64,000 bases of DNA, from contig NZ_CP019420.1 of NCBI RefSeq assembly GCF_001984215.1, positions 4,340,001 to 4,404,000 on the forward strand, given 5' to 3'. A model generated the notes under the pieces. The model had not been told where the DNA came from. It made no database searches and worked only from the letters and a program-made list of their open reading frames with translations. Position numbers and translations under genes: made by a program. Positions 7,003 through 58,127 of this stretch are shown piece by piece. The DNA comes from Mycobacterium sp. MS1601. Its GTDB lineage: Bacteria; Actinomycetota; Actinomycetes; Mycobacteriales; Mycobacteriaceae. How positions within the stretch are numbered: the stretch's first letter is position 1; each line of letters begins with the position of its first letter.

Positions 7003-7009
7003 CGGGCAC

Positions 7010-7786
7010 ATGCCGACTGAACTGCCCACCCAGCGACTGCGTCGCCGCCTCGCCGAGGCTTCCGAGGAACCCGAACCGGCCGCCGATGATCCCAAGGACC
7101 TGCTGCCCCGGTGGGTGCCCGATGCCGAGCCGCGCAGCTGGTGGGAGTCCGCGCGCGCCGACCCCGGCCGGGCCGGTGCATGGGCGTTGGGGGGCGTGGC
7201 CGCCATCGCTGTGCTGATCACCGTGTTCACCCTGATCCGCGACGAACCTCCGCCGGTGGCCGCGGCGAATCTGCCTGCTGTGGAGATGGTGTCGTCGACC
7301 AGTCCGCCGCCGCAGGACACGTCGGTGATCGTCAGTGTGGTGGGCCTGGTGCACAAGCCCGGCCTGGTGACGTTGACTGCGGGCGCGCGGGTGGCCGATG
7401 CCTTGGCCGCCGCCGGCGGTGTCACCGATGGCGCCGACACCCTCGGGCTCAACATGGCCAGGCGGGTTGCCGACGGTGAACAGGTGGTGGTCGGAATCGC
7501 GCCGCTGCCCGGTCAGCAAGCCGCGCTGGGTAGTTCGGTGGCCCCGGACCCGTCCGCGGCCCCGGCGGCCGGCCCGTCGCCCGCCCAGGGTGTGGGCCAG
7601 GTGGATCTGAACACCGCCACCGCCGAACAGCTGGACACCCTGCCCGGCGTCGGTCCGGTGACCGCAGCGGCCATCATCGCCTGGCGGGACGCCAACGGCC
7701 CGTTCGGCACCGTCGAGCAACTCGGTGAGGTCGACGGCATCGGGCCTGCCCGGCTCGACAAGCTGCGGGACCTCGTCACAGTGTGA
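7010..7786 (+). CDS. ComEA-like DNA-binding protein with helix-hairpin-helix
   Basis: 258 residues. A cytoplasmic N-terminus is followed by one membrane segment (ALGGVAAIAVLITVF, about residues 60-80). Then comes an SLBB domain with the VVGLVHKPGLVTL motif, a Pro/Ala-rich linker, and a C-terminal helix-hairpin-helix (VDLNTATAEQLDTLPGVG and the repeat near DGIGPARLDKL). ComEA proteins capture double-stranded DNA at the cell surface for uptake. comEC follows with a GTGA overlap. Natural competence is not generally seen in mycobacteria, so the physiological role is uncertain. Confidence 0.9.
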   Translation: MPTELPTQRLRRRLAEASEEPEPAADDPKDLLPRWVPDAEPRSWWESARADPGRAGAWALGGVAAIAVLITVFTLIRDEPPPVAAANLPAVEMVSSTSPPPQDTSVIVSVVGLVHKPGLVTLTAGARVADALAAAGGVTDGADTLGLNMARRVADGEQVVVGIAPLPGQQAALGSSVAPDPSAAPAAGPSPAQGVGQVDLNTATAEQLDTLPGVGPVTAAAIIAWRDANGPFGTVEQLGEVDGIGPARLDKLRDLVTV

Positions 7787-40815: not shown

Positions 40816-42491
40816 TCACCTCAAGTCAGCGTCGTCGGCCCGTATGGCCCATTGGGCGAAACGCTCCCCGGCCTCTCGTTGTTTCACGAAATTGCGAACA
40901 ACTCGGTCGATGTAGTCGCCGAGCTCGTCGCTGGTGACCTTGTGCTGACGCAGTTTGCGGCCGAATCCGCTGTCCAGACCGAGGCTGCCGCCCAGGTGCA
41001 CCTGGAAGCCCTCGACCTGGCCGCCGTCACCGTCGTCGACCATCTGGCCCTTGAAGCCGATGTCGGCGATCTGGATGCGCGCGCACGAGTTGGGGCAGCC
41101 GTTGATGTTCACGGTCACCGGCACGTCCAGCTGGGCGTTGATGTCCTCGAGCCGCTTCTCCAACTCCGGCACCAGCGTCTGGGACCGCTTGCGAGTCTCG
41201 GCGAAGCTCAACTTGCAGAACTCGATGCCGGTGCAGGCCATCAAATTACGTCGCCAGTTCGACGGATCCGACGGTAGGCCCAGCTCATCGAGACCGGCGC
41301 GCAACTCATCGATCTTGTCGTCGGGGACATCGAGCACGATCAGCTTCTGGTAGGGCGTGAACCGGACCCGGTTCGACCCCGCCGCTTCGGCCAGGTCGGC
41401 GACCTTGGTCAAGATGGTGCCGGACACGCGGCCCGCGATGGGGGCGACACCGACGGCGTTGAGCCCGTTCTTGAGCTTGGTGATGCCCACGTGGTCCATG
41501 GGTCGGGTCAACGGATCCGGAGCGGGGCCGTCGATCAGGGGCCGCTTCAGGTACTCGGTCTCGAGAACTTCACGGAACTTCTCAATACCCCAGTCCTTGA
41601 TGAGGAACTTCAGCCGTGCCTTGGCCCGCAGTCGACGGTATCCGTAGTCACGGAAGACGCTGACCACGCCCTCCCACACGTCGGGCACCTCGTCCAGCGG
41701 CACCCACGCGCCCACGCGCTGACCGAGCATCGGGTTGGTGGACAGGCCGCCGCCGACCCACAGGTCGAAGCCCGGGCCGTGTTCGGGTGATGGACACCCA
41801 CAAACGCGATGTCGTTGACCTCGTGCACCACATCCTGCAGGCCCGAGATGGCGCTCTTGAACTTGCGCGGCAGGTTGGAGTACTCGGGCTTGCCGATGTA
41901 GCGCTTGACGATCTCGTCGATGGCCGGCGTGCCGTCGAGCACCTCATCGGGGTGTTCGCCGGCCAGGGGCGAGCCCAGCACGATGCGGGGGCAGTCGCCG
42001 CAGGCTTCGGTGGTCTGCAGGCCGACCTCGTCGAGGCGGCGCCAGATCTCCGGCATGTTCTCGACCTGGATCCAGTGGTACTGGACGTTCTCGCGGTCGG
42101 ATAGGTCGGCGGTGTCGCGACCGAAGTCGGTGGAGATGCCGCCGAGGGTGCGCAGTGCCTTGGTGGTCAGGGCGCCGCCGTCGCAGCGCACCCGCAGCAT
42201 GAAGTACTTGGCTTCCAGCAGGTCGATGTTCTCGTCGCCGGTCCAGGTGCCGTCATAACCTTGCTCACGCTGGGTGTAGAGGCCCCACCAGCGGAACCGG
42301 CCGCGCAGGTCACCCTTGTCGATGCTGTCGAAGCCGCCCTTGGCGTAGATGTTCTCGATGCGGGCCCGCACGTTGAGCGGGTTGTCGTCCTTCTTGGACT
42401 GCTCGTTGGCGTTGAGTGGCTCGCGGTAGCCGAGCTTCCACTGGCCTTCGCCGCGGGGTCGCTTGGCAGGTCGTGCTTTGGGGGTGGTCAT
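40816..42491 (-). CDS. sirA: Ferredoxin-dependent sulfite reductase, interrupted by a one-base frameshift
   Basis: Start ATG 42491. The N-terminal part (to about 41785) and C-terminal part are in different frames. At 41783-41786 the sequence lacks one base; adding a G restores HHPEHGPGFDLWVGG and a continuous protein of about 558 residues, the usual SirA length. Siroheme/[4Fe-4S] ligands CTGIEFC and GCPNSC are intact in the second part. SirA reduces sulfite to sulfide. As the only assimilatory sulfite reductase here, loss would give cysteine auxotrophy, so a sequencing error is likely. Equivalent to Rv2391. Confidence 0.92.
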
Positions 42492-42785: not shown

Positions 42786-43970
42786 ATGACCATGCTCTCC
42801 CCGCCGGCGACAGGCCCCGCCGCTGTACCGCCCCTGGTGATGTCGCCGGGTGGTGCGTTCGGCATCTACGTGCACGTGCCGTTCTGCGCGACGCGCTGTG
42901 GCTACTGCGATTTCAACACCTACACCCCTGGTGAGCTGGGTGGAGCTAACCCCGACGGCTGGTTGGCAGCAGTGCGACGCGAACTGGCGCTGGGGGCGGC
43001 GCTGCTGCCGTCGCCGGTGGTGAACACGGTGTTTGTCGGTGGTGGTACCCCGTCACTGCTGGGTGCCGCCGGTCTGGCCGGTGTGCTGGACGCCGTGCGC
43101 GACGCTTTTGTGCTGGCACCTGATGCCGAGGTCACCACCGAGGCCAATCCGGAATCCACGTCGCCGCGGTTCTTCGAAGAGATCCGGGGCGCCGGCTATA
43201 CCCGGGTGTCGCTGGGCATGCAGTCGGCGGCGGCACATGTGCTGCGGGTGTTGGACCGCACCCATTCGCCGGGGCGGGCCGTGGCCGCCGCCGGTGAGGC
43301 GCAGGGCGCCGGGTTCGAGCACGTGAACCTCGATCTGATCTACGGCACGCCGGGGGAGACCGACGATGACCTGCGGCGCTCCGTCGACGCCGTCATCGGC
43401 GCGGGCGTCGACCATCTGTCGGCGTATGCCCTGGTGGTCGAGGACGGCACCGCTCTGGCGCGCCGGGTGCGGCGCGGGGAGATGCCGGCCGTCGACGACG
43501 ACGTGCTGGCGTCGCGCTACGAACTGTTGGACTCGATGGTGCGGGCCGCCGGATTCGAGTGGTACGAGGTGTCCAACTGGAGTAAGCCCGGTGGGGAGTG
43601 TCGGCACAACCTCGGCTACTGGGGTGGGGGCCAGTGGTGGGGCGCCGGGCCCGGAGCGCACGGCTTCGTCGGCGACACCCGGTTCTGGAATGTCAAGCAC
43701 CCCAATGCATATGCCGCACAGCTGGATTCGGGTGTGCTGCCGATCGCCGACTTCGAGGAGTTGTCGACAGAGGATCGGCACGTCGAGCACGTGCTGTTGA
43801 ACATCCGGCTGCGGGACGGGTTGGCGCTCGATGTTCTGCGTCCCGCCGAGCGGGGGCGAGTCGATGCCGTGGTGGCCGAAGGGCTGGTGGTCGTCGAGGG
43901 TGATCGTCTGGTGCTGACCGACCGCGGCCGCCTGCTCGCCGACGGCATTGTCCGCTCCCTCCTCGAGTGA
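42786..43970 (+). CDS. hemW: Radical SAM heme chaperone HemW (HemN-like)
   Basis: 394 residues; ATG 42786, with another ATG two codons later. The radical SAM motif CATRCGYC (CX3CX2C) is near residue 36, with GGGTPS and the HemN-type domain following. CRHNLGYW contains the HNxxYW motif used to separate heme-binding HemW from true coproporphyrinogen dehydrogenase HemN. HemW hands heme to respiratory enzymes. The M. tuberculosis counterpart, Rv2388c, is annotated as HemN. It ends in a dispersed palindrome. Confidence 0.9.
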   Translation: MTMLSPPATGPAAVPPLVMSPGGAFGIYVHVPFCATRCGYCDFNTYTPGELGGANPDGWLAAVRRELALGAALLPSPVVNTVFVGGGTPSLLGAAGLAGVLDAVRDAFVLAPDAEVTTEANPESTSPRFFEEIRGAGYTRVSLGMQSAAAHVLRVLDRTHSPGRAVAAAGEAQGAGFEHVNLDLIYGTPGETDDDLRRSVDAVIGAGVDHLSAYALVVEDGTALARRVRRGEMPAVDDDVLASRYELLDSMVRAAGFEWYEVSNWSKPGGECRHNLGYWGGGQWWGAGPGAHGFVGDTRFWNVKHPNAYAAQLDSGVLPIADFEELSTEDRHVEHVLLNIRLRDGLALDVLRPAERGRVDAVVAEGLVVVEGDRLVLTDRGRLLADGIVRSLLE

Positions 43971-45732: not shown

Positions 45733-45751
45733 TTAGGCAAGCCTATCCAGA
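45733..45751 (+). promoter_or_regulatory. IdeR iron box upstream of the PKS
   Basis: TTAGGCAAGCCTATCCAGA matches 13 of 19 positions of the IdeR consensus TTAGGTTAGGCTAACCTAA, including both TTAGG and CTA cores. Iron-loaded IdeR would repress the PKS, so it should be induced by iron starvation together with the mbt genes. Confidence 0.75.
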
Positions 45752-45781
45752 CTGTTGCGGAGCGCCGGGGTTCTGTCTGAA

Positions 45782-48700
45782 GTGGCAAGTGAGGACGCCC
45801 CTGAGCTGATCGCCGTCGTCGGAATCGGATGCCGGCTCGCCGGTGACGTCACCACCGCGGCTGACTTCTGGCGCTTCGTGCTCGACGGCCGCAGTGCGGT
45901 GCGGGAGATCCCCGCCGAGCGGTGGGAACCATATGTGCGCCGCGATCCGCGTAACGCCGCGATCCTGAAAGAGACCACCCCCTGGGGGACCTTCCTCGAC
46001 GATCTGCCCGGCTTCGATGCCGAGTTCTTCGGCGTCTCGCCACGCGAGGCCGAGCTGATGGACCCGCAGCAGCGGTTGGCGGTCGAAGTGTGTTGGGAGG
46101 CACTGGAACACGCGGGCATCCCACCCCGGTCGGTCGCGGGAACCGACACCGCCGTGCTGATGGGCGTCAACTCCGACGACTACGGCAAACTCATCATGGA
46201 AGACCTGCCGGGCATCGAAGCCTGGACCGGTATCGGCACGTCGTTGTGTGGTGTGGCCAACCGGGTCTCGCATCTGCTCGACCTGCGGGGTCCCAGTGTC
46301 GCGCTGGACGCCGCCTGCGCGGCGTCCCTGGTCGCGGTGCACCAGGCCTGCCAGTTGTTGCGGGACGGCGAGACGACACTGGCGCTGGCGGGCGGCGTCA
46401 GCGCGCTGATCGGCCCCGGGCTGACCCGGGTGCTGGATGTGGCCGGTGCCACCGCCCCTGACGGACGCTGCAAGTCGTTCGACGCCTCCGCAGACGGGTA
46501 CGGCCGCGGGGAAGGCGCCGCGGTCGTGGTCCTCAAGCGGCTGGCCGATGCCCACCGTGACGGCGACCGGGTGCTCGCGGTGATCCGGGGCGGCGCGGTG
46601 GCCCAGGATGGCCGCACCGTCGGCATCATGTCCCCCAACGGCGACGCCCAGGCTGAGCTGTTCCGTCGGGCTTGTGCCGTCGCTCAGGTGCCACCGAGCA
46701 CTGTCGACTTCATCGAAGCGCACGGAACCGGCACGCCGACAGGCGATCCCGTAGAGCTCGGTGCGCTGGCCGAGGTGTACGGGGCGGGGCGGGTGACTCC
46801 GTGTGCGGTCGGTTCGGTCAAGCCGAACACCGGCCATCTCGAAGGTGGTGCCGGTGTCGTTGGCCTCGTCAAGGCCACTCTGGCGCTGCACCATCGAGTC
46901 ATACCGCCCACCGCGGGAATCCGGAAACTGACCCCGGCGCTCGACTGGCCCACCAGTGGGCTGCGGGTGCCCACCTCCGCGGAGTCCTGGACCGCGACCG
47001 GCGCCCGCCCGCGGCGTGCGGCGGTGTGCAGCTACGGCTACGGCGGCACCATCGCCCACGTCCTGCTCGAAGAGGCTCCAGCAGTGGCCATCGAGGCTGC
47101 TGACGCCGTTGCACCCGTGGTGGTTCCGCTGTCCGCCAAGTCGCCGACAAGGCTGGCTCGATATGCCGAGGTGCTGGCCGACGAGCTGGGTGAGGCACCA
47201 CTGCAGCAGGTGGCCAACACCCTGTGGACGCGACGCTCGCATGAGCCGGTGCGGGCCGCGGTGGTCGCCGACAGCCGCGACGACGTGCTCGCCGGCTTGC
47301 GTGCCGTGGCGGCGGGGGAGCGTGACCCACGGGTGGTCACCGGAAGCGCCGTGCCCGGTGCAGGCGCGGTGTGGGTATTCTCCGGGCACGGATCACACTG
47401 GGCTGGAATGGGTTCCGAGCTGTTGGCCAGCGAGCCGCGGTTCGCCGAGGTGATCGACGCCGTCGAACCGGTGTTCGCCGCGGAGCTGGGATTCTCGCCG
47501 CGGGTGGCACTGGAGTCCGGCGAACTGGGTGGCACCGACCGAGTGCAGGCACTGACCTTCGCGATGCAGGTTGGTCTTGCCGCCGTACTGCGTGCTCGCG
47601 GCGTCGAACCTGCTGCGATCATCGGGCACTCGGTCGGCGAAGTGGCGGCCTGTGTGGAATCCGGTGTGCTCACGCTGGAACAGGGCGCGCACGTCGCCTG
47701 CTACCGGGCCCGCGGGTTCCGGGCGGTGCAGGGCCGGGGCGCGATGGCTCTGGTGGGCCTGCCTTTCGCCGACGCCGAGCAGAGGCTGGCCGGCCGCGAC
47801 GACGTGGTGGCCGCCATCAGTTCGTCGCCGGTGTCCACTGTCGTCTCCGGGGATGCCGGCGCCGTGGAGGCGGTGGCCGCGGCTTGGGCCGCGCAGGGTG
47901 TGATGGTGCGTCGGGTGGCCACCGACGTGGCCTTCCACAGCCCGGCGATGGACGCGCTGACAGGCGAACTCGCCCGTCTCACCGGCGAATTGGCGCCACC
48001 GAAGCCTGCGGAGATCCCGTTGTACTCCACAGCACTGGCTGATCCCAGGTCGACGGCGCCGCGCGACCCGGACTACTGGGTGGCCAATTTGCGCGGCCGG
48101 GTCCGCTTCGCGGAGGCGGTGGCAGCCGCGGCCCACGACGGGCACCGGGTGTTCGTGGAGGTCTCCGCGCATCCGGTGGTGTCCCACTCGGTGGTGGAGA
48201 CGATCAACCACTTGGGCATCAACGACCCCGTGGTGATCCCGGTGCTGCGCCGTGACCAGCCGCAGAGCCGGGCGGTCGCCACGGCGGTGGCCTCCCTGTA
48301 CTGCCACGGTGTGGTGGCCGAGAAACGCAGCGGTGCTTGGGCATTCGATCTCCCGGGCACCCAGTGGCAGCACCGACGGTTCTGGCGCACCCCGACCCCG
48401 CCACCAGGTGGGCACGGTGTGCATGACGTCGACTCCCACACACTGCTCGGTGGGCGCATGGACGTCGCCGCCACTCAGACGGTGGTATGGCAGACCCGCC
48501 TCGACATGGACACCCGACCCTATCCGGGAGATCACCCGGTCCAGGGCACCGAGATCGTGCCCGCCGCGGTGCTTCTGAACACCTTCCTCACCGCCGCAGG
48601 CACCGACCTGGTGGATGTCCGGTTGCGCACACCGGTAGCCCCCGGCCGCAGCCGCGATGTCCAGGTGGTCAAGCAGGACGGCGCGCTCACCTTGTCGACA

Positions 48701-50791
48701 CGGCTGATCGACGAGGAGGACGGCGGCTGGCTCACCCACTGCGCGGCGACCGCCGCCCGCGACACAGTGGAGAGCACACCGGTGACCCCGCACTGCCCCG
48801 AGCTTCTGCCGCCCGGCCATGTGGTGTCCACGTTGGCCGATCTGGGTGTGGCCGCCATGGGATTCGGCTGGGACATTCTGGACTTGCGCCGCGGCGACGG
48901 ACAGTTGCTGGTCCGAGTCTGCGCCGAAGCCGACGGCTCGGTGCCCGCCAGTTGGGCGAGCTTGCTCGATGCGGCCACCTCAGCCGCCTCGACGGTGTTC
49001 GACGGCCCGCCGCGGTTGCGCATGCCCGCCCGCGTGGAGCGGGTCCGGGTGCAGGGCGCACCGCCGGCGGTCGGCATGATCCAGGTGATCCGCCGCGCGG
49101 GGACCACCACCACCGACGTGACCATCAGCGACACCGCCGGCGCCGTGCTGGCGCAGTTGCACGGCATGAGCTTCGAGGAACTGGAGAATCCAGGCGCGAA
49201 CACCAAGATTCTGCACGACCTCGTGTGGTCACCGACGTCCTACGACGAGACCGCCCGCCCCGACGAGATACTGCTGGTCGGCGGTGACGCGGAAACCCTC
49301 GCCGTGGTGGTGCGTGACCTCGCGGCCGCCAACGTCGTTTACCGCGTATTCGCCGAATCCGCCGAGCTGCCCACCGATCTGGCCGAGGGCACCGTCGTGC
49401 TGGTGCTGCCGCACCCCGAGGGCACCGCGCAGTCCTCGGTGCAGCAGGTGCTGGCCACGCTCACCGCCACACACACCGGCAAGGCCCGGCTGTGGGTGCT
49501 CACCCAGCGGGTGCACGAGGGCGACAACGTGACTCATGCGCCGCTGTGGGGCTTGGCTCGGGTGGCCGCCGCCGAACATCCGCGGGTGTGGGGCGGGGTT
49601 CTCGATCTGGCCGATGCTCGAATTCCGCTGGGTGTCTTGACATCACTGGCCGGTCGGGGCGTCATCGTGGTGCGTGACGGGGTGGCGAGCACCGCCCGGC
49701 TGGAGTTCGCCGCCGCAGGCTCGGGGACACCTCTGTCGTGTTCGCCCGCAGGGACGTATCTGATCACCGGCGGCACCGGTGCTCTGGGGCTGTTGATGGC
49801 GCAGCGGCTGGCTGACCTGGGCGCCCGTCGCCTGGTGTTGCTCTCGCGGTCGGGTATTGCACCCCGATCGGACTGGGGCGCCTCCGATTCCGAGGCCGTC
49901 CGGGTGGTCGCCGCGCTGGAGGGCCGTGGTGTGTCGGTGGTGGTGGCCGCCGTCGATGTCGGTGCTCCCGACGCTGCCTGTCTGGTGCGTTCCGTGCTTG
50001 CAGACCTGCCGCCCGTGCGAGGCGTCATCCACGCCGCCGGCGTGGAAGCCGGTGCGTTGCTGGTGGACACCACCGCCGCGGATCTGACGGCGACCATGCG
50101 GCCCAAGGTCGACGGAGCCCTGACACTGCATCAGGTGTTCCCGCCCGGCGTGCTGGACTGGCTGGTGCTCTTCTCGTCGTGCGGATATCTACCCGGTTTC
50201 CCCGGGCAGGGTGCCTATGCCGGCGCCAATGCGTTCCTGGACACCTTCGCCCGGTACCGCCGCAACCTCGGCGACCGCACCACCAGCGTGGCGTGGACGG
50301 CGTGGCGTGGACTCGGCATGGGTTCGACGTCGGGTTTCATCGCCGCGCAACTGGAGGCGCTCGGGATGGACACCGTGGGCGCCGAGGACGCCGTGCGCGC
50401 ACTCGATGCCGCCATGCGCGCCGACCGCGCACACCTGGTGGTGCTGCCGGTGCTGCCCGAAGCCGCGACGGTTCCCATGCTCGCGGCCGTAGCGCCTTCT
50501 GCGGCAACGGAGTCCGTCACCACTGATGTCGCCGGTCCCGGTGACGCGGACATCGCGCAGTGGGCGAAGGAGCAGGTGTTGGCGGCCGTGGCGGCTGAAC
50601 TGGGTCTGCCCGCCGACGCGGTGGACCTCACCACGCCGCTGGTGGAGATCGGCGTCGACTCCATCATGACGGTCGCTGTCCGACGGTCGCTGGAGAAACA
50701 GACCGGGCTGTCGTTGCCGCCGACACTGCTGTGGGAGTATCCGACGGCGGCGGCGGTCACGGCCCGCATCACCGAACTGCTTACGCCGTGA
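45782..50791 (+). CDS. Iterative type I PKS, 6-methylsalicylate synthase-like (KS-AT-DH-KR-ACP)
   Basis: 1669 residues from the GTG at 45782; a TTG at 45755 is possible but lies only four bases from the iron box. KS with Cys179 (DAACAASL) and His in EAHGTGT; AT with Ser617 (GHSVGE) and a VAFHS specificity motif that predicts malonyl-CoA; DH-like domain with His918 in HPVQGTEIVPAAVLLNTF; KR with TGGTGALG (near 1328) and Tyr1479; ACP Ser1627 (GVDSIMT). Size, order, the GTEIVPAA motif and the FSSCG...WRGLGMGS segment match bacterial and fungal 6-methylsalicylate synthases. It stands where mbtI is expected in the mycobactin locus, so it probably makes the aryl cap. No thioesterase domain. Confidence 0.82.
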   Translation: MASEDAPELIAVVGIGCRLAGDVTTAADFWRFVLDGRSAVREIPAERWEPYVRRDPRNAAILKETTPWGTFLDDLPGFDAEFFGVSPREAELMDPQQRLAVEVCWEALEHAGIPPRSVAGTDTAVLMGVNSDDYGKLIMEDLPGIEAWTGIGTSLCGVANRVSHLLDLRGPSVALDAACAASLVAVHQACQLLRDGETTLALAGGVSALIGPGLTRVLDVAGATAPDGRCKSFDASADGYGRGEGAAVVVLKRLADAHRDGDRVLAVIRGGAVAQDGRTVGIMSPNGDAQAELFRRACAVAQVPPSTVDFIEAHGTGTPTGDPVELGALAEVYGAGRVTPCAVGSVKPNTGHLEGGAGVVGLVKATLALHHRVIPPTAGIRKLTPALDWPTSGLRVPTSAESWTATGARPRRAAVCSYGYGGTIAHVLLEEAPAVAIEAADAVAPVVVPLSAKSPTRLARYAEVLADELGEAPLQQVANTLWTRRSHEPVRAAVVADSRDDVLAGLRAVAAGERDPRVVTGSAVPGAGAVWVFSGHGSHWAGMGSELLASEPRFAEVIDAVEPVFAAELGFSPRVALESGELGGTDRVQALTFAMQVGLAAVLRARGVEPAAIIGHSVGEVAACVESGVLTLEQGAHVACYRARGFRAVQGRGAMALVGLPFADAEQRLAGRDDVVAAISSSPVSTVVSGDAGAVEAVAAAWAAQGVMVRRVATDVAFHSPAMDALTGELARLTGELAPPKPAEIPLYSTALADPRSTAPRDPDYWVANLRGRVRFAEAVAAAAHDGHRVFVEVSAHPVVSHSVVETINHLGINDPVVIPVLRRDQPQSRAVATAVASLYCHGVVAEKRSGAWAFDLPGTQWQHRRFWRTPTPPPGGHGVHDVDSHTLLGGRMDVAATQTVVWQTRLDMDTRPYPGDHPVQGTEIVPAAVLLNTFLTAAGTDLVDVRLRTPVAPGRSRDVQVVKQDGALTLSTRLIDEEDGGWLTHCAATAARDTVESTPVTPHCPELLPPGHVVSTLADLGVAAMGFGWDILDLRRGDGQLLVRVCAEADGSVPASWASLLDAATSAASTVFDGPPRLRMPARVERVRVQGAPPAVGMIQVIRRAGTTTTDVTISDTAGAVLAQLHGMSFEELENPGANTKILHDLVWSPTSYDETARPDEILLVGGDAETLAVVVRDLAAANVVYRVFAESAELPTDLAEGTVVLVLPHPEGTAQSSVQQVLATLTATHTGKARLWVLTQRVHEGDNVTHAPLWGLARVAAAEHPRVWGGVLDLADARIPLGVLTSLAGRGVIVVRDGVASTARLEFAAAGSGTPLSCSPAGTYLITGGTGALGLLMAQRLADLGARRLVLLSRSGIAPRSDWGASDSEAVRVVAALEGRGVSVVVAAVDVGAPDAACLVRSVLADLPPVRGVIHAAGVEAGALLVDTTAADLTATMRPKVDGALTLHQVFPPGVLDWLVLFSSCGYLPGFPGQGAYAGANAFLDTFARYRRNLGDRTTSVAWTAWRGLGMGSTSGFIAAQLEALGMDTVGAEDAVRALDAAMRADRAHLVVLPVLPEAATVPMLAAVAPSAATESVTTDVAGPGDADIAQWAKEQVLAAVAAELGLPADAVDLTTPLVEIGVDSIMTVAVRRSLEKQTGLSLPPTLLWEYPTAAAVTARITELLTP

Positions 50792-50845
50792 ATTTCTGCG
50801 CCAGGGCGGTGACTGCCATCGAGGTCACCGCCCTGGCGCAGAAAT
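50792..50845. terminator. Perfect 22-bp inverted repeat between PKS and mbtA
   Basis: The left arm (50792-50813) begins ATTTCTGCGCCAGGGCGG, a ten-base loop follows, and the right arm (50824-50845) is its exact complement. It starts on the base after the PKS stop and ends seven bases before the mbtA stop. A bidirectional terminator is likely. Layout resembles the dispersed 50-bp palindromes, but the sequence differs. Confidence 0.8.
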
Positions 50846-50852
50846 CCACGGC

Positions 50853-52526
50853 TTACGCCAGCAGCTGCTTGATCAACGCGGGCTTGTCCACCTTGCCCAC
50901 CGCGGTCTTCGGCAGTGAAGGCAACGGCACCAGCACGTCCGGCCGTGAGTGCGAGGCGACGCCACGGGTGTCCAGGTAGGCATTCAGCTCGGCCAGTGTC
51001 ACCGGCTTGCCACTGAAAACCACTGCTGCGCAGATCTTCTCACTGAGAAATTCATCCGGCAGGGGCACCGCCGCGGCAAACACGATCGACGGGTGGGTGT
51101 GCAGGTGGTCTTCGAGGTCGGTAGCCGACACCGTCTCACCGCCGCGGTGGATGACGTCCTTGATGCGGCCCACCACCTCCACGTACCCCGCGCGCGGACC
51201 GTCGGCGAAGATGCGCACCCGGTCCCCGGATCGGTAGAAACCGTCGGGTGTGAAGGACCGGGCATTGGCGTCGTCGGCCCGGTAGTAGCCGTTGAGGGTG
51301 TAGGGCCCGCGGACCAGCAGTTCGCCTTCGGCGCCCGGTGCCACCTCGACGCCGGACTCGTCCACCACCTTCATCTCGTCCATCGGCGTCATCGGCCTGC
51401 CCTGGGTGTGCAGCACCACGTCGCGTGGATCGCCCACGTACGTGAAATTCAGCATCCCCTCGGCCATTCCGAAGATCTGCGACAGTCCGGGAGTCAGGCC
51501 GTCGAGAATGTACTCGGCCTCCTGCGGCGACATCCGGGACCCGCCCACCTGCACCCAGCGCAGCGACGTCGGCAGCACAGGTTCCCAGTCGCAGGCCTGT
51601 GTCCATACTTTCGCCAGCGCGTTCACCAACCCGGTGACCGTCACCGTGTGCTTGTCGATCAGCGCGAAACACGCCTCCGGGCTGGGGTCGGTGGTGAACA
51701 CCGTGGTGGCGCCGACGGTCATCGAGCCGAGGAGGCCCGGACAGGCCAGCGGGAAGTTGTGTCCGGCGGGCAGTACCACCAGATAGGTGTCCCGCTCGGT
51801 CATCTCGCAGGCCTGCGCGCAGGCACGGGCGTTGTAGACGTAGTCGTCGTGGGTACGGGCGATCAGTTTGGGCAGCCCGGTGGTGCCACCGGACACCAGC
51901 AGCAGCGCCGGATACGACGTGTCCACCGGCGAGCGTGCCGGGGCCGGTGGGCCCGCGTACTCGGTCAGGGCGGACCATGGCAGGAAGTCGCCGGCGGGTC
52001 CGTCGACGATGATGTGCCGCAGATCGGGGTGTTCGGCGGCCAGGTCGGCGGCCATGACGCGGTAGTCGAACCCGCCGAGCCGGTCCGGGATCACCGCGCC
52101 CACCGCACCGCTGACGGCGGCGAAGTGCGCCATTTCCGCCGAGCGATGGCCGGGCAGGCACATCACCGGCACCACCCCGGCGCGCAGCAGGCCGAACAGC
52201 GCCACGGCGAACTGGCAGGTGTTCGGCAACTGCAGCAGCATCCGGTCGCCGGGAACCACACCGCGGGCGGCCAGTCCGGCGGCGATCCGGTCGGCCACCT
52301 CGTCCAGTTCGGCGTAGGTGTAGCTGGACTGGGTGTCGACGATCGCCGTTCGCTGTGGCCACGTCTGGGCGCCGTCACGCAGGATGGAGTCCAGCGGGTC
52401 TCCGGTCCAGTAGCCGGCCGCCCGATACTGCTCGGCCCGCGCGCTGGGAAACGGTACGAAGCCCCTCAGCAGGTCAGCGTAATGGTCCAGTTCACCGGCC
52501 TGATGGCGATCGAATCCCGTGCTCAT
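50853..52526 (-). CDS. mbtA: Aryl acid-AMP ligase of mycobactin synthesis
   Basis: 557 residues from the ATG at 52526; an open frame to 52646 would cross the iron box and mbtB. Stand-alone adenylation domain: LLLVSGGTTGLPKLIARTH (P-loop-like A3), GHNFPLACPG in the aryl-acid pocket region, YRSGDRVR (A7), GRIKDVIHRGGE (A8) and a C-terminal catalytic Lys in TAVGKVDKP. It activates the aryl acid and loads it on the aryl carrier domain of MbtB. In M. tuberculosis the acid is salicylate; here 6-methylsalicylate is possible. Divergent from mbtB over a shared iron box. Confidence 0.95.
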   Translation of the reverse strand: MSTGFDRHQAGELDHYADLLRGFVPFPSARAEQYRAAGYWTGDPLDSILRDGAQTWPQRTAIVDTQSSYTYAELDEVADRIAAGLAARGVVPGDRMLLQLPNTCQFAVALFGLLRAGVVPVMCLPGHRSAEMAHFAAVSGAVGAVIPDRLGGFDYRVMAADLAAEHPDLRHIIVDGPAGDFLPWSALTEYAGPPAPARSPVDTSYPALLLVSGGTTGLPKLIARTHDDYVYNARACAQACEMTERDTYLVVLPAGHNFPLACPGLLGSMTVGATTVFTTDPSPEACFALIDKHTVTVTGLVNALAKVWTQACDWEPVLPTSLRWVQVGGSRMSPQEAEYILDGLTPGLSQIFGMAEGMLNFTYVGDPRDVVLHTQGRPMTPMDEMKVVDESGVEVAPGAEGELLVRGPYTLNGYYRADDANARSFTPDGFYRSGDRVRIFADGPRAGYVEVVGRIKDVIHRGGETVSATDLEDHLHTHPSIVFAAAVPLPDEFLSEKICAAVVFSGKPVTLAELNAYLDTRGVASHSRPDVLVPLPSLPKTAVGKVDKPALIKQLLA

Positions 52527-52591
52527 CGATGGGTTTGGCCCCTCTGGGTAGGAGTGTTCGGTCCTCCGAATATAAGGTAGCGTCGTCGAAG

Positions 52592-52610
52592 TTAGGGCAG
52601 CCTGATCTAA
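52592..52610. promoter_or_regulatory. IdeR iron box in the mbtA/mbtB divergent promoter
   Basis: TTAGGGCAGCCTGATCTAA matches 14 of 19 positions of the IdeR consensus with both TTAGG and CTAA ends intact. It lies 65 bases before mbtA and 17 before mbtB and can control both directions. Confidence 0.85.
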
Positions 52611-52627
52611 TTCGGAGGTAACGAGAA

Positions 52628-55600
52628 GTGGGTGTTGCTGCGACAACTGCAGACACCGTGCGTGATGAGGTGGCCGAGCTTCTCGGAGTCAGCGCAGACA
52701 CTCTCGACCCGCAAGCCGATCTGATCGCCTCCGGCCTGGATTCCATCCGCATGATGTCGCTGTCGGGCCGCTGGCGTAAGCAGGGTATCGACGTCGGTTT
52801 CGCGGCGCTGGCCGAACAGCCCACCGTGGCGGCGTGGATGGATCTGGTGCGCGACCGTACCTCGACCCCGCCCGCGGCCGACACATCCGAGGCGCCGACC
52901 GACGATCCGGACGAGCCCTTCCCGCTGGCTCCGATCCAGCACGCACTGTGGGTGGGACGCAACGCCGACCAGGAACTCGGTGGCGTCGCCGCCCACCTCT
53001 ACGTCGAATTCGACGGCCGCGACGTCGATCCGGACCGGCTGCGGGCGGCGGCCAAAGCCCTGTCGGACCGTCATCCGATGCTGCGCGTCGAGATCCTGGC
53101 TGACGGCACCCAGCGGATCAGCGACCGAGCACTGGTTCCGAAGATCGCCGACCTGCGTCACCTCGACGTCGACGCCGCCGACGCGCAACTCGAGATCATC
53201 CGCGATCGCAAGAGCCACCAGATCCTCGACGGCGAAGTACTCGAACTCGCACTGACCCTGCTACCTGGTGGACGCACCCGCGTCCACGTCGACCTGGACA
53301 TGCAGGCCGCTGACGCGGTGAGCTACCGCAACTTCATGGCCGATCTCGCTGTCCTCTACTCCGGGGCGCACCTGCCGCCGCTCGGGTACACCTACCGGCA
53401 GTACCGGGCGGCGTTCACCGCGGCCAACCCGCCGACTGACGAGGACCGGCAGTGGTGGGCCGAGCGTATCCCGGAGCTGCCCGAGCCGCCGGCGCCGCCG
53501 CTGGTGCCGCCGGCCGAGCGGGCCAACCCCCGCCGCAGCACCCGCCGTCACCACTTCTTCGATGCCGCGGCAAAGGAGTCACTGTTTGCTGCGGCGCAAC
53601 GTCGTGGCATCACGCCGGCCATGGCCGTGGCCGCCTCCTACGCCGGAGTGCTGCGTCGCTGGTCGGTCCACTCACGGTTCATGCTCAATCTGCCGATGTT
53701 CGGTCGCGAGCCGTACCACCCCGATGTGGACAAACTGGTCGGCGACTTCACCACCTCGCTGATGCTCGACATCGATCTCGCCGACACCACCACGGCCGCC
53801 GAACGTGCCCAGGTGGTGCAGGACGCGCTGCACACCACCGCCGGGCACTCCACTTATTCGGGTCTTTCGGTGCTTCGTGATCTCACCCGCCACCGCGGTA
53901 CTCAGGTGTTGGCGCCGTTCGTGTTCACCAGCGCGCTCGGTCTGGGCGACCTGTTCGCCGGCGATGTCACCGAGCAGTTCGGCACTCCGGTCTGGCACAT
54001 CTCGCAGGGCCCCCAGGTGCTGCTGGACGCACAGATCACGCCGTTCGACGGCGGTCTGCTGCTGAACTGGGATGTCCGCGAGGATGCGTTCCGGCCCGGT
54101 GTCATCGACGCGATGTTCAGCTACCACCTCGCCGAGTTGAACCGCCTCGCCTGCGATGACGCCTCCTGGGACCGTGCCGATCCGCCTGCGGTACCCGCCG
54201 AGCAGCAGCGGGTGCGTGACGAGCACAACGGTGTGACGACTGCGCCCAGCGCGGATGCGTTGCACGACGGGTTCTTCCGAGCAGCGGCCGCGCATCCGGA
54301 CGCACCCGCGGTGTACAGCAGCCTCGGGGACTTCAGCTACGGGCAGCTGCGCGAACAGGTGTTGGCCGTCACCGCGACGCTGCGGGCGCGCGGTGTTCGC
54401 CCCGGTGACGTGGTGGCGGTGATGGGCCCCAAGACCGCCGAGCAGATCCCGGCACTGTTGGGTATCAGCGCGGCGGGTGCGGCCTACCTGCCCATCGGTG
54501 TCGATCAGCCGGACGACCGTGCGCAGCGTATCTTGGAGACCGCAGGTGCGCATTCGATCCTGGTGTGCGGCAAGCACATCGATGCCTTGCCGGTGCCCGC
54601 CATCACCGTCGCGAACGCCATCCGGGCTGGGTGGGCATACATCGCCGACACCGAGCCTGCGCACGTGGATCCGGCACAGTTGGCCTATGTCCTGTTCACC
54701 TCGGGCTCCACCGGTGAACCCAAGGGTGTCGAAGTCAGCCATGACGCCGCGATGAACACCGTGGAATTCATCAACGCGCACTTCGAAATAGGCGCCGCAG
54801 ACCGGATCCTGGCACTGTCCACGCTCGAGTGCGACCTCTCGGTCCTCGACGTCTTCGGCACCACGCGAGCCGGAGCGTCCATCGTGGTGGTGGACGAGGA
54901 AGACCGGCGTAACCCCGATGTCTGGGCTCGCCTGATCGACGAAAACCAGGTCAGTGTCCTGCATTTCATGCCGGGCTGGCTGGAAATGCTGGTCGAGGTG
55001 GTGGACGGCAGGCTGCCGTCGGTCCGGGTGGTGCCCACCGGCGGCGACTGGGTGCGTCCCGAACTCGTTCGTGCCCTGCGCAGTATCGCACCGGGCGTGC
55101 GGGTGGCCGGACTGGGCGGTGCGACGGAGACTGCGACGCACAACACCATCTGCGAACCCGGCGAGCTGCCCGAACAGTGGTCCGCCGTGCCGTTCGGCGT
55201 TCCGCTACCCAACAACGCCTGCCGTGTGGTGGCGGCCGACGGCACCGATTGCCCCGACTGGGTTCCCGGTGAGTTCTGGGTGGCCGGCCGAGGCGTGGCC
55301 GACGGCTACCGTGGCCGGCCGGATCTCACCGCGGAGCGGTTCGTCGAGTACGACGGCCGAATCTGGTATCGCACCGGTGATCTGGTCCGGTACCTCCCCG
55401 GCGGGATACTGGATTTCGTGGGCCGGGTGGACCACCGGGTCAAGGTCAGCGGCTACCGCATCGAACTCGGCGAGGTCGAGGGGTCCTTCAGCCGGATCGC
55501 CGGTGTCGACGGTGCGGTGGCTGCGGTGCTGCCGGTGCCCGGTGACCGCACCGGGCAGCAACAACTGGCCGCCGTGGTCCGGGTCAGCGACCCGGCGTTG

Positions 55601-56101
55601 ACCCCGGCAAAACTGAGCACCGACCTGGCTGGTTACCTTCCGCCGCACATGGTTCCGAGCCGAATCGTCCTGGTGGATGCCATCCCGTTCACCGTCGGCG
55701 GCAAGATCGACCGCCGGGCGGTGGCCGCTGTACTGGCTGCGCAGCCCGCCGAGCAGGAGTCGGTGTTCCAGGCGCCCTCGACGACTTTGGAGCGGGCACT
55801 GACGCACCTCGTCTCGGAGATCCTGGGCCGCAGCGGGATCGGCACCGACGACGATTTCTTCTCCCTCGGCGGCGATTCTGTGCTCGCCACCCAGGCCGTG
55901 GCCCGCATTCGCGAGTGGCTGGACGCCCCGCACGTCGCGGTGTCCGACATCTTTGCCGCGCGCAATGTCGCCAAGCTTGCGGCACTGCTGGTCGACCACG
56001 AAGCTGACAGCCGACGGCTGGAGTCCGTTGCCGAGCTCTATCTCGAAGTCACACAGATGGACAACGCCGAGGTGCTGACGGCGCTGGACTCGACACCATG
56101 A
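52628..56101 (+). CDS. mbtB: Mycobactin NRPS MbtB (ArCP-Cy-A-PCP)
   Basis: 1157 residues, GTG with GGAGG ten bases upstream. Aryl carrier domain with Ser39 (LDSIRM); cyclisation domain (about 95-525) with the DxxxxDxxS motif in DMQAADAVS; adenylation domain with LFTSGSTGEPKG (near 690) and YRTGDLVR; PCP Ser near 1083 (GGDSVLAT). It couples the aryl acid to Ser or Thr and closes the oxazoline ring. M. tuberculosis MbtB is longer, with a thioesterase domain at the C-terminus; here that function is a separate overlapping gene. Confidence 0.95.
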   Translation: MGVAATTADTVRDEVAELLGVSADTLDPQADLIASGLDSIRMMSLSGRWRKQGIDVGFAALAEQPTVAAWMDLVRDRTSTPPAADTSEAPTDDPDEPFPLAPIQHALWVGRNADQELGGVAAHLYVEFDGRDVDPDRLRAAAKALSDRHPMLRVEILADGTQRISDRALVPKIADLRHLDVDAADAQLEIIRDRKSHQILDGEVLELALTLLPGGRTRVHVDLDMQAADAVSYRNFMADLAVLYSGAHLPPLGYTYRQYRAAFTAANPPTDEDRQWWAERIPELPEPPAPPLVPPAERANPRRSTRRHHFFDAAAKESLFAAAQRRGITPAMAVAASYAGVLRRWSVHSRFMLNLPMFGREPYHPDVDKLVGDFTTSLMLDIDLADTTTAAERAQVVQDALHTTAGHSTYSGLSVLRDLTRHRGTQVLAPFVFTSALGLGDLFAGDVTEQFGTPVWHISQGPQVLLDAQITPFDGGLLLNWDVREDAFRPGVIDAMFSYHLAELNRLACDDASWDRADPPAVPAEQQRVRDEHNGVTTAPSADALHDGFFRAAAAHPDAPAVYSSLGDFSYGQLREQVLAVTATLRARGVRPGDVVAVMGPKTAEQIPALLGISAAGAAYLPIGVDQPDDRAQRILETAGAHSILVCGKHIDALPVPAITVANAIRAGWAYIADTEPAHVDPAQLAYVLFTSGSTGEPKGVEVSHDAAMNTVEFINAHFEIGAADRILALSTLECDLSVLDVFGTTRAGASIVVVDEEDRRNPDVWARLIDENQVSVLHFMPGWLEMLVEVVDGRLPSVRVVPTGGDWVRPELVRALRSIAPGVRVAGLGGATETATHNTICEPGELPEQWSAVPFGVPLPNNACRVVAADGTDCPDWVPGEFWVAGRGVADGYRGRPDLTAERFVEYDGRIWYRTGDLVRYLPGGILDFVGRVDHRVKVSGYRIELGEVEGSFSRIAGVDGAVAAVLPVPGDRTGQQQLAAVVRVSDPALTPAKLSTDLAGYLPPHMVPSRIVLVDAIPFTVGGKIDRRAVAAVLAAQPAEQESVFQAPSTTLERALTHLVSEILGRSGIGTDDDFFSLGGDSVLATQAVARIREWLDAPHVAVSDIFAARNVAKLAALLVDHEADSRRLESVAELYLEVTQMDNAEVLTALDSTP

Positions 56102-56838
56102 CCAGTCCCACCGGATTCGCGCCCTGGATCAAGCATTTCGCCGGTGCCGCCGCGTCGAACAGCGCGCCGGTGGTGGTGTTCCCGCACGCCGGCGGCGCCG
56201 CGGCGGCATATCGAAGCCTGGCGATCGCGTTGAGCGTGGCCGGCCCCGATACCTACATCGTGCAGTACCCGCAGCGTGCTGACCGGCTGACGCACCCGGC
56301 GTCACCCACCATCGAAGAGCTGGCCGCCGAATTGTTCGACGCGGGGGACTGGGCACAGGTGGCGCCGCTGCGGCTGTTCGGTCACTGTATGGGCGCCATC
56401 GTGGCCTTCGAGTTCGCCCGCATCGCTGAAACTCGCGGTGTGACAGTGCATCAACTGTGGGCCTCGGCGGGCCAGGCGCCCAGCACTGTCGCAGGTTCAC
56501 CCAGGGTCCCCACCACGGACCGCGAATTACTGGCCGACATCGCCGACCTGGGCGGCACCGACCCGATGCTGCTCGAGGACGAGGATTTTGTAGACCTGCT
56601 GCTGCCGGCGGTGCGCGCCGACTACCAGGCGTTCAATCGGTATCACTGCGAGGTAGGTGTGCGTATCGGTGCGGACATCCATGTCATCGGCGGTGACGAT
56701 GACCACCGCGTGCAGCCGGAGTGGTTGCGCCGCTGGGAACTGCACACCAGCGCTGTCTTCACCGAGACGGTGCTGGACGGCGGCCACTTCTACATCAACG
56801 AACATCTGGACCTGGTGGCAGAGTTGGTGAGTGCATGA
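56098..56838 (+). CDS. mbtT: Mycobactin type II thioesterase with Cys in the nucleophile elbow
   Basis: 246 residues, ATGA overlap with mbtB. Alpha/beta hydrolase of the RifR/GrsT type: VVVFPHAGGAAAAYRSLA at the N-terminus, nucleophile elbow GHCMG (Cys near residue 101), and GGDDDHRV and GGHFYINEH for the Asp and His. The usual elbow is GHSMG; here Cys replaces Ser. Type II thioesterases clear misprimed carrier domains. Matches the separate mbtT of non-tuberculous mycobacteria. Confidence 0.88.
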   Translation: MTSPTGFAPWIKHFAGAAASNSAPVVVFPHAGGAAAAYRSLAIALSVAGPDTYIVQYPQRADRLTHPASPTIEELAAELFDAGDWAQVAPLRLFGHCMGAIVAFEFARIAETRGVTVHQLWASAGQAPSTVAGSPRVPTTDRELLADIADLGGTDPMLLEDEDFVDLLLPAVRADYQAFNRYHCEVGVRIGADIHVIGGDDDHRVQPEWLRRWELHTSAVFTETVLDGGHFYINEHLDLVAELVSA

Positions 56839-58127
56839 CGTCCGATGATCCCGTCGTGATCGTGGGCATGGCCGTTGAGGCCCCTGGCGGCGTCGACACC
56901 GCCGACAAGTACTGGACGCTGCTGTCGGAGCAGCGGGAAGCGCTGGGACCGTTTCCGACGGACCGTGGCTGGCCCATCCGCGAGATCATCGAAGGCTCGC
57001 AGCGTGACGGCTTCAAACGCATCCACGATCTTGGCGGATTCCTCGACACTGCAACGGAGTTCGACCCGGAGTTCTTCGGTATTTCACCCCGCGAGGCAGT
57101 CGCCATGGACCCCCAGCAGCGGGTGGCATTGCGCATCGGGTGGCGCGCCATCGAGAACGCGGGTATCAATCCCGACGACCTCGGCGGCCACGACGTGGGC
57201 TGCTACGTCGGCGCCTCCCTCACCGGGTTCGGCAATGATCTGGCCGAATTCACCGACCACACCGGCCATCTCATCACCGGCACCGCACTGGGCGTCATCT
57301 CCGGCCGTATCGCCTACACCCTGGACCTGGCAGGCCCGGCGCTCACCATCGACTCGTCCTGCGCTTCGGCACTGGTTGCGTTCAATGTCGCGGTGTCGGC
57401 GGTGCGCTCCGGCGACTGCAGCATGGCACTGGCCGGCGGCGTCTGTGTCATGGGATCACCAGGTTTCTTCGTCGAGTTCGCCAAGCAGCACGCCTTGTCC
57501 GACGACGGACGGTGCCGGCCCTACAGCGCCCACGCCACCGGCACCGTCTGGGCCGAAGGGGCGGCGATGTTCCTGCTGCAAAAGCGTTCCGGGGCACTGC
57601 GTGACGGCAGGACCATCCTCGCCGAGGTCCGCGCCAGCTGTGTGAACCAGGACGGACGCACCACGGGGCTCACCGCGCCCAGCGGTACGGCGCAGGCACG
57701 GCTGTTCCGACGCGCCATCGACATTTCGGGCGTGCACCTCGACGAGGTCGGCATGGTCGAGGGGCACGGCACCGGCACCTCCCTTGGCGATCGAACCGAA
57801 CTCGGCTCGCTGGCCCGGACCTACGGAGCGGGAACCCCGAGGAGGGGACCGCTACTCGGGTCGGTCAAGTCGAACGTGGGGCATTCCCAGGCCGCCGCGG
57901 GCGCACTCGGACTGGCCAAGGTGCTGGTGTCGGCGCAGCGAGCCACCATCCCGCCCACGCTGCATGTCGACGAACCCAGCCGCGCCATCGAGTGGGAGTC
58001 CCAGGGTTTGCGTCTGGCGGACAAGCTCACCCCATGGCCCGCCGTCGACGGCCGACGGATTGCGGCGGTGTCCGCCTTCGGAATGAGCGGCACCAACGCG
58101 CACGCCATCGTGGCGGTGCCCGGATGA
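56835..58127 (+). CDS. mbtC: Mycobactin polyketide synthase MbtC (ketosynthase)
   Basis: 430 residues from the ATG at 56835, ATGA overlap with mbtT; upstream open frame lies inside mbtT. A stand-alone type I ketosynthase: Cys176 in DSSCASALV, His in EGHGTGT and KSNVGHSQAAAG. With MbtD it adds the malonate-derived unit that becomes the beta-hydroxyacyl linker between the two lysine halves of mycobactin. Confidence 0.95.
   Translation: MTSDDPVVIVGMAVEAPGGVDTADKYWTLLSEQREALGPFPTDRGWPIREIIEGSQRDGFKRIHDLGGFLDTATEFDPEFFGISPREAVAMDPQQRVALRIGWRAIENAGINPDDLGGHDVGCYVGASLTGFGNDLAEFTDHTGHLITGTALGVISGRIAYTLDLAGPALTIDSSCASALVAFNVAVSAVRSGDCSMALAGGVCVMGSPGFFVEFAKQHALSDDGRCRPYSAHATGTVWAEGAAMFLLQKRSGALRDGRTILAEVRASCVNQDGRTTGLTAPSGTAQARLFRRAIDISGVHLDEVGMVEGHGTGTSLGDRTELGSLARTYGAGTPRRGPLLGSVKSNVGHSQAAAGALGLAKVLVSAQRATIPPTLHVDEPSRAIEWESQGLRLADKLTPWPAVDGRRIAAVSAFGMSGTNAHAIVAVPG

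What the first reader, a model, noticed from the sequence alone, without database searches (positions are those of the whole stretch)
45733..52526. 6-methylsalicylate-type iterative PKS in place of mbtI in the mycobactin locus
Seen: a KS-AT-DH-KR-ACP protein of about 1670 residues with a malonyl-type AT motif (VAFHS), a DH-like motif HPVQGTEIVPAAVLLNTF and a KR tail with FSSCG and WRGLGMGS segments that I recognise from 6-methylsalicylate synthases. It has its own IdeR box and is convergent with mbtA. Known: M. tuberculosis places the salicylate synthase mbtI between hemN and mbtJ/mbtA; here hemW, an SDR and a regulator are followed by the PKS, and mbtI is not in the window. From memory, some mycobactins (for example mycobactin P of M. 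phlei) carry 6-methylsalicylate. Inference: this is the genetic basis of a 6-methylsalicyl-capped mycobactin, an acetate-derived replacement for the chorismate-derived cap. The KR argues against an orsellinate synthase.
Basis: partly seen in the sequence, partly recalled or inferred. Interest (0 to 1): 0.92.

Follow-up and report, generated by a model that had tools for sequence, protein, structure and literature searches.

The report
Polyketide-made cap for mycobacterial iron scavenger
This mycobacterium appears to build the aromatic tip of its iron-scavenging molecule with a polyketide enzyme instead of the usual salicylate enzyme, and the genes that make and attach that tip seem to have been swapped between species as a set.

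Summary
Window 45755-50791 (+) encodes an intact 1678-residue KS-AT-DH-KR-ACP iterative PKS with an IdeR-like box, convergent with mbtA; no mbtI was found in the genome (99.99% complete). Its KS groups with actinobacterial aromatic-type PKSs (ChlB1 and kin), apart from seven other KSs of the genome.

Comparative tests go further. In 296 Mycobacterium genomes, 233 of 234 with mbtD have mbtI or this PKS; 39 of 40 with neither lack mbtD. In 30 genomes MbtA splits exactly into PKS-linked and mbtI-linked halves (MbtB likewise in 27), although rpoB rejects that split and MbtD (21) is mixed. Fixed differences gather at the aryl pocket of MbtA and in the ArCP-Cy part of MbtB, none in MbtB's A domain. 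In one lineage the mbtB halves have different histories. In 79 of 79 scored distinct loci the PKS has its own IdeR-like box or lies behind mbtA.

Best reading: an exchangeable acetate-derived starter cassette (PKS-mbtA-mbtB front) that replaces the chorismate-derived one and gives a 6-methylsalicyl-capped mycobactin. Not shown: the product; another hydroxy-aryl acid is possible. 6-Methylsalicyl mycobactins are known chemistry (recalled); ten searches of the held library gave no paper linking them to this PKS.

The parts
45733..45751 (+). IdeR-like box upstream of the PKS (TTAGGCAAGCCTATCCAGA)
   Evidence: 14 of 19 to the recalled consensus TTAGGTTAGSCTAACCTAA; at least 13 in 66 of 86 orthologous regions against 0 of 430 control windows
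45755..50791 (+). Iterative type I aromatic PKS, KS-AT-DH-KR-ACP, 1678 aa; proposed 6-methylsalicylate synthase
   Evidence: KS tree
45809..46921 (+). KS domain (residues 19-389)
   Evidence: PF00109 2e-85, PF02801 1.6e-41
47369..48295 (+). AT domain, malonyl-type VAFHS motif (motif reading recalled)
   Evidence: PF00698 2.3e-78
48437..48667 (+). DH / product-release-type domain, HxxxGxxxxP motif present
   Evidence: PF21089 2.1e-9
49751..50308 (+). KR domain
   Evidence: PF08659 1.5e-54
50570..50770 (+). ACP domain with GVDSI phosphopantetheine site
   Evidence: PF00550 1.3e-15
50853..52646 (-). mbtA, aryl-AMP ligase of the PKS-linked type (N342, I391, M398, F401); likely start ATG at 52526
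   Evidence: M. smegmatis structure 5kei E 2.9e-244; diagnostic positions; the only match of the genome at E <= 1e-80
52592..52610 (.). IdeR-like box between mbtA and mbtB (TTAGGGCAGCCTGATCTAA)
   Evidence: 15 of 19 to the recalled consensus; 74 of 74 scored mbtB upstream regions have at least 13
52628..56101 (+). mbtB, ArCP-Cy-A-PCP NRPS; its ArCP-Cy part belongs to the PKS-linked type
   Evidence: Pfam; trees; fixed differences
56098..56838 (+). Type II thioesterase (mbtT-like by position; name recalled)
   Evidence: PF00975 1.2e-50
56721..58127 (+). mbtC-like ketosynthase (ORF as listed; true start later)
   Evidence: PF00109 1.8e-76
57992..61018 (+). mbtD (ORF as listed; true start later); its family tree is mixed between cap types
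   Evidence: NF037940 1311 bits, cut-off 1150; tree
42786..43970 (+). hemW-like radical SAM gene, flank of the locus
   Evidence: PF04055 2e-22; found in the fetched DNA of 61 of 67 mycobacterial loci

Best explanation
The PKS is an iron-regulated iterative aromatic synthase that condenses one acetyl and three malonyl units into 6-methylsalicylate. The acid is released, activated by a matching MbtA and loaded on the ArCP of a matching MbtB, giving a mycobactin capped with 6-methylsalicylate instead of chorismate-derived salicylate. PKS, mbtA and at least the ArCP-Cy front of mbtB form a starter cassette that is the alternative of the mbtI-mbtA-mbtB cassette, and the two have been exchanged repeatedly within Mycobacterium. 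Shown here: intact domains, no mbtI found, complementary distribution, co-divergence of MbtA and of the ArCP-Cy part of MbtB, IdeR-like boxes, conflict with the rpoB tree. Inferred: 6-methylsalicylate as product, release as free acid, loading by MbtA, direction and number of exchanges.
For: Domains. No mbtI found, no PchB-type lyase over cut-off. Genus scan, 296 genomes: PKS in 106, mbtI over cut-off in 167, mbtD in 234; 105 of 106 PKS genomes have mbtD; 40 have neither PKS nor mbtI and 39 of those lack mbtD. mbtA lies within 6 kb of the PKS in 72 of 80 distinct loci; in six of the other eight the fetched DNA ends within 0.75 kb. M. aurum carries the PKS and no mbtI over cut-off; its mycobactin A is 6-methylsalicyl by recall. 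MbtA: 61 PKS-only against 26 mbtI-only proteins, 193 positions conserved in both, 4 fixed differences, all near the aryl pocket. MbtB: 7 of 7 (95% threshold) to 19 of 19 (80%) fixed differences in ArCP-Cy, none in the A domain. MbtA and MbtB trees split 18/12 and 15/12 by cap type with full support, while rpoB rejects the 18/12 split (p-AU 2e-49) and MbtD is mixed. Box logic in distinct loci: 52 of 52 convergent PKSs have their own box, 0 of 19 scored codirectional ones do, and 20 of 20 of the latter have one before mbtA. Precedent: cahuitamycin C, attributed to a 6-MSAS plus the ligase CahJ (PMC4757757, passages).
Against: No product was measured. The KS is joined to ten actinobacterial PKSs whose products I do not know rather than to ChlB1, and one relative is named '5-methyl-1-naphthoate synthase' by its source, so chain length is not fixed by phylogeny. 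16 of 106 PKS genomes keep an mbtI over cut-off, so replacement is not obligatory. In two loci (L004, L060) 10 kb downstream of the PKS hold no mbtA. ChlB1 does not release its product without ChlB3 (PMC9573744, passages) and I found no dedicated release enzyme here. With the full published active-site list the MbtA clustering is not significant (3 of 5 fixed positions, P 0.12); with a narrower aryl list of my own choosing it is (4 of 5, P 0.0008). Only five independent pairs on supported branches exist on the rpoB tree (sign test 0.0625).
Confidence: 0.84

Rival explanations
1. The PKS supplies a different hydroxy-aryl acid, for example a hydroxynaphthoate, so the mycobactin cap is not 6-methylsalicyl.
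For: KS-AT-DH-KR-ACP also fits naphthoate synthases (recalled); one relative is named 5-methyl-1-naphthoate synthase by its source; the products of the nearest non-mycobacterial KSs are not known to me.
Against: M. aurum, whose mycobactin A is 6-methylsalicyl by recall, carries the ortholog and no mbtI over cut-off. MbtA keeps Asn297 and Cys302, the salicylate-type residues (reading recalled), in all 61 PKS-only and 26 mbtI-only proteins.
Confidence: 0.1
2. The PKS sits in the locus by chance or makes an unrelated metabolite, and salicylate comes from another route.
For: The genome has an isochorismate synthase; some species have both PKS and mbtI; in two loci mbtA is not within 10 kb.
Against: No PchB-type lyase over cut-off; mbtA within 6 kb in 72 of 80 distinct loci; IdeR-like boxes; MbtA and MbtB co-divergence; 233 of 234 mbtD genomes have one source or the other.
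Confidence: 0.04
3. No cassette exchange: both types were ancestral and differential loss, or one old duplication, explains the trees.
For: 16 genomes hold both mbtI and PKS, a possible intermediate; donor-recipient pairs were not identified.
Against: Each of 10 genomes tested has a single mbtA at E <= 1e-80. The two halves of mbtB have different histories in G022, G171 and G013, which suggests recombination. The rpoB tree needs 9 changes of type, at least 5 on well-supported branches.
Confidence: 0.2

Closest known systems
ChlB1, 6-methylsalicylate synthase of chlorothricin (Streptomyces antibioticus)
   Same: KS-AT-DH-KR-ACP, same length class, 60% identical KS, same broad set of aromatic-type PKSs
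   Different: different subgroup of the KS tree; ChlB1 passes its product to an ACP through ChlB3 (PMC9573744, passages), here an aryl-AMP ligase is expected to take the free acid
Cahuitamycin 6-MSAS with CahI and CahJ (Streptomyces gandocaensis, PMC4757757)
   Same: a 6-MSAS and a salicylate synthase feed one aryl-AMP ligase, and one product has a 6-methylsalicyl cap (passages)
   Different: there the PKS is unlinked and the ligase flexible; here it is linked, has IdeR-like boxes and comes with its own type of MbtA and MbtB, mostly without mbtI
mbtI-mbtA-mbtB front of the canonical mycobactin locus
   Same: same pathway position and downstream enzymes; hemW beside mbtI in several fetched loci
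   Different: chorismate-derived salicylate; MbtA with P342, V391, L398, Y401 (window numbering)
Mycobactins P, A and H (6-methylsalicyl; recalled)
   Same: the product predicted here
   Different: known as structures; no genetic basis came up in ten searches of the held library

Membership tests
Bacterial 6-methylsalicylate synthase | KS-AT-DH-KR-ACP on one protein with intact motifs | tested here: met
   motifs
Bacterial 6-methylsalicylate synthase | KS among aromatic iterative PKSs and apart from the genome's other KSs | tested here: met
   60 rows held apart from 7 other KSs of the genome (support 92; 3 of the 10 other KSs were too short or distant to enter); 28 mycobacterial PKSs one group (100); joined to ten actinobacterial PKSs (96). 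NcsB, AziB, AviM and fungal 6-MSAS were not available as sequences
Bacterial 6-methylsalicylate synthase | Makes 6-methylsalicylate (tetraketide, one ketoreduction) | not testable with these tools
   needs enzyme assay or LC-MS
Orsellinate synthase (AviM type) | No KR domain (recalled) | tested here: not met
   KR present (PF08659 1.5e-54); KR-less Micromonosporaceae relatives (L071 by Pfam; L072 by its closeness to L071) fall outside the mycobacterial group
Naphthoate synthase (NcsB/AziB type) | Hexaketide product; clade membership | tested here: inconclusive
   same domain order (recalled); no reference sequence could be fetched by name
Mycobactin locus | mbtA, mbtB, mbtC, mbtD with IdeR boxes | tested here: met
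Mycobactin locus | Salicylate synthase mbtI | tested here: not met

The most novel reading that the evidence does not exclude
Mycobacterium has two interchangeable starter cassettes for its siderophore, one chorismate-derived (mbtI-mbtA-mbtB) and one acetate-derived (PKS-mbtA-mbtB front), which have been swapped between species many times, at least once with a breakpoint near the Cy/A junction inside mbtB; the cap is thus a switchable trait, and species with both genes make mixed caps through a 6-methylsalicylate-type MbtA.
Probability: 0.68. Interest if true: 0.85.

Novelty: new variant of a known kind. Interest (0 to 1): 0.78.

Why it matters
It proposes genes for a chemical variant of mycobactin known for decades (recalled), and it shows a natural change of starter unit in an NRPS-PKS line: source enzyme, loading ligase, carrier and cyclisation domain change together, while the next adenylation domain does not. 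The fixed residues in MbtA and MbtB name what may have to change for a 6-methylsalicyl starter. It also means that mbtI, treated as the entry enzyme of mycobactin synthesis, was not found over its cut-off in 90 of the 234 mbtD-bearing genomes tested, 89 of which have this PKS.

Tried and rejected
Rejected: orsellinate synthase (KR intact). Lipid PKS (KS apart from seven other KSs of the genome). Salicylate from the three chorismate-enzyme homologues: they are TrpE, PabB and isochorismate synthase. Strictly obligatory replacement: false, 16 genomes keep both. P0060 (source name M. phlei) as proof for M. phlei: not used as such, since the best of 296 genomes is only 87% identical to a 300-residue piece of it and its flanks were not seen.

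Led nowhere: the plasmid collection (187 records, none covering 80% of the PKS); three reviews searched for related terms; no reference sequences for NcsB, AziB, AviM or fungal synthases. Chavadi et al. 2011 on the mbt cluster is not held, so I cannot say whether it noted the PKS. The first rpoB tree used wrong reading frames for several rows and was discarded; one search replaces it. The MbtB tree failed (labels) and was redone.

Limits of the counts: the genome search scored only the best few candidates per genome (5 of up to 45). The 167 mbtI genomes include G171, whose match is in pieces with a gap in the model. The lists for the cross-tabulation were typed from the tables into, and presence of mbtD was read from the table. 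rpoB is a single-gene stand-in for the species tree. Rows dropped or doubled: L196 (partial mbtA) left out of the MbtA comparison; seven loci (L197, L200, L202-L206) are second copies of records, among those counted where they had the gene, and taken out; eight distinct loci whose fetched DNA has no mbtA; G076, G158 and G258 left out of the MbtB trees (no mbtB in the fetched DNA); 9 of the 30 rpoB genomes left out of the MbtD tree (no coordinates listed or not fetched).
Full report
OBSERVATION. The ORF 45755-50791 (+) encodes 1678 residues with KS, AT, DH (N-terminal part), KR and ACP domains in that order, all over Pfam cut-offs. An IdeR-like box lies at 45733-45751. The gene is convergent with mbtA (50853-52646, -), whose best structure match is M. 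smegmatis MbtA 5kei (E 2.9e-244). mbtB, a type II thioesterase, an mbtC-like KS and mbtD follow. The window lies in a 6.83 Mb genome, 99.99% complete; the salicylate-synthase model TIGR03494 has three matches, none over the cut-off, which are TrpE, PabB and an isochorismate synthase. No PchB-type lyase reaches its cut-off.

WHAT KIND OF PKS. A KS tree of 67 rows puts the window with 27 other mycobacterial PKSs (100) and then with ten actinobacterial PKSs (96); ChlB1, the characterised chlorothricin 6-methylsalicylate synthase, is in a neighbouring group of 18 (90), and KR-less Micromonosporaceae relatives in another of 4 (86). Seven other KSs of this genome lie apart (92); three more were too short or distant to enter. 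The tree cannot separate 6-methylsalicylate from naphthoate synthases, because no naphthoate reference could be fetched.

DISTRIBUTION. In 296 Mycobacterium genomes, mbtI is over cut-off in 167, the PKS in 106 (linker region, E <= 1e-60), mbtD in 234 (E <= 1e-100). Cross-tabulated (lists typed from the tables): PKS without an intact mbtI 90 (one of them, G171, has an mbtI in pieces that the tool counts among its 167), both 16, mbtI only 150, neither 40. Of the 40, 39 lack mbtD; of the 106, 105 have it (the exception G068 has only a partial PKS frame). So 233 of 234 mbtD genomes have at least one aryl source (exception G265). Among 26 genomes behind named PKS loci searched for mbtI, 6 are over cut-off: M. 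septicum, M. senegalense, M. peregrinum, M. porcinum, M. setense, and M. longobardus in pieces; M. aurum, M. neoaurum, M. vaccae, M. vanbaalenii and 16 others have none. A 2023 survey reported mbtI as missing from M. porcinum isolates (PMC10667711, passages), against the match here.

LOCUS ARCHITECTURE. The genome-contig scan returned 73 loci (the best 80 of 86 matches were kept), 67 of them from Mycobacteriaceae by their titles. Where mbtA is present it lies within 6 kb. In ten of the 67 loci, M. septicum, M. porcinum, M. senegalense, M. setense, three of M. peregrinum and three unnamed (here 'fortuitum group', a recalled label), mbtI sits directly before the PKS. In G027, G102 and G154 mbtI stays on the mbtD side: the 20 kb fetched, mostly between mbtI and mbtD, hold no mbtA or mbtB; their only mbtA lies with mbtB beside the PKS elsewhere. 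In G223 and G261 no mbtI was found, and PKS, mbtA and mbtB lie away from mbtD. So the three genes stay together even when they leave the rest of the locus.

REGULATION. With a recalled consensus, 66 of 86 PKS upstream regions score at least 13 of 19; 430 control windows inside the same genes never exceed 12; 74 of 74 mbtB upstream regions score at least 13. In distinct loci: 52 of 52 convergent PKSs and 8 of 8 without mbtA have their own box; 0 of 19 scored codirectional ones do; 20 of 20 codirectional loci have a box before mbtA, as do 51 of 52 convergent ones.

CO-DIVERGENCE. Of 193 MbtA positions conserved at 95% in both 61 PKS-only and 26 mbtI-only proteins, four differ: window 342 N/P, 391 I/V, 398 M/L, 401 F/Y. 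These are 303, 352, 359 and 362 in M. tuberculosis numbering (offset 39, my reading of the shared motifs); Val352, and the neighbours Val302 and Leu360, are in a published active-site list (PMC10745912, passages; a docking study). The ten fortuitum-group and three G027/G102/G154 proteins are PKS-type, with one exception at one position (L in place of M398). After removing duplicates: 190 conserved, 5 fixed (564 S/A is added); 4 of 5 within two residues of an aryl sub-pocket list of my own (P 0.0008), 3 of 5 within one residue of the full published list (P 0.12). In MbtB (57 against 26 distinct proteins) all fixed differences lie in ArCP-Cy: 7 of 7, 11 of 11 and 19 of 19 at thresholds 95, 90 and 80%; none among 136, 173 or 222 conserved A-domain positions (P 0.019, 0.0007, 1e-6). 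Related sequences are not independent, so these P values are guides.

HISTORY. In 30 genomes chosen by me to cover both types, the rpoB tree needs 9 changes of type (at least 5 on well-supported branches), and holding the 18 PKS genomes together is rejected (p-AU 2e-49). MbtA splits 18/12 by type with 100/100 support, MbtB 15/12 with 100 (27 genomes). MbtD (21 genomes) is mixed by type, and groupings repeat the rpoB tree: G223, G261, G027, G102 and G154 sit beside mbtI-only G232 and G145. Splitting MbtB, the ArCP-Cy half keeps the 15/12 split (100/100), but the A-PCP half of G022, G171 and G013 joins mbtI-only G232, G145, G175 and G053 (95/93), so recombination near the Cy/A junction is likely in that lineage (no topology test was run on it). 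On supported branches there are five independent pairs, too few for a significant sign test (0.0625; there I set the pocket state equal to the type, as one search lists N342 in all 18 and P342 in all 12).

MECHANISM. Inferred: iron limitation lifts IdeR repression; the PKS makes 6-methylsalicylate from acetyl and malonyl units; the acid is released by its DH/TH-type domain or by a thioesterase; MbtA adenylates it and loads the ArCP of MbtB; the Cy domain makes the oxazoline. ChlB1 needs ChlB3 to pass on its product (PMC9573744, passages), so free release here is an assumption; cahuitamycin C is the precedent for 6-methylsalicylate reaching an aryl-AMP ligase (PMC4757757, passages).

KNOWN OR NEW. 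That mycobactins P, A and H carry 6-methylsalicylate is recalled. Ten searches of the held open-access library listed no paper that ties it to a PKS in Mycobacterium; most subscription papers are not held, among them a 2011 study of the mbt cluster. I file it as a new variant of a known kind: known enzyme class, known chemistry, but a linked and exchanged starter cassette that I found in none of the papers seen.

Noticed in passing
window 40816-42491 (-): The sulfite/nitrite reductase gene lies in two overlapping frames (41610-42491 and 40816-41730), each with part of the NIR_SIR domains: a frameshift, sequence error or two genes.
   Followed up: no
L001 1468-2688 (-) (G000:C1 about 5.83 Mb): The match of the TrpE frame begins at model position 115, so the N-terminal part is not in that frame; perhaps another frameshift or sequence error.
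   Followed up: no
L065, Streptomyces caeruleatus, 5758-7368 beside the PKS at 10001: A relative of the PKS has an NRPS-like stretch (33% to MbtB) a few kb away, a possible 6-methylsalicyl siderophore cluster.
   Followed up: no
L004 and L060, 15.1-25.1 kb: Two relatives have the PKS beside hemW with its box but no mbtA in the next 10 kb; what lies there was not read.
   Followed up: no
L195, G265:C1:890000-909900: The one genome with mbtD but neither mbtI nor PKS: no mbtA found and only a 32% mbtB match in 20 kb.
   Followed up: partly
L196, G068:C8:26500-46400: PKS and mbtA are only partly in frame, mbtI is over cut-off elsewhere and mbtD was not found: perhaps a decaying PKS cassette.
   Followed up: partly
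M. longobardus (G313), C9 about 126 kb (L112 region): A salicylate synthase in pieces, model positions 1-235 and 323-425 only, in a PKS genome: perhaps mbtI being lost.
   Followed up: partly
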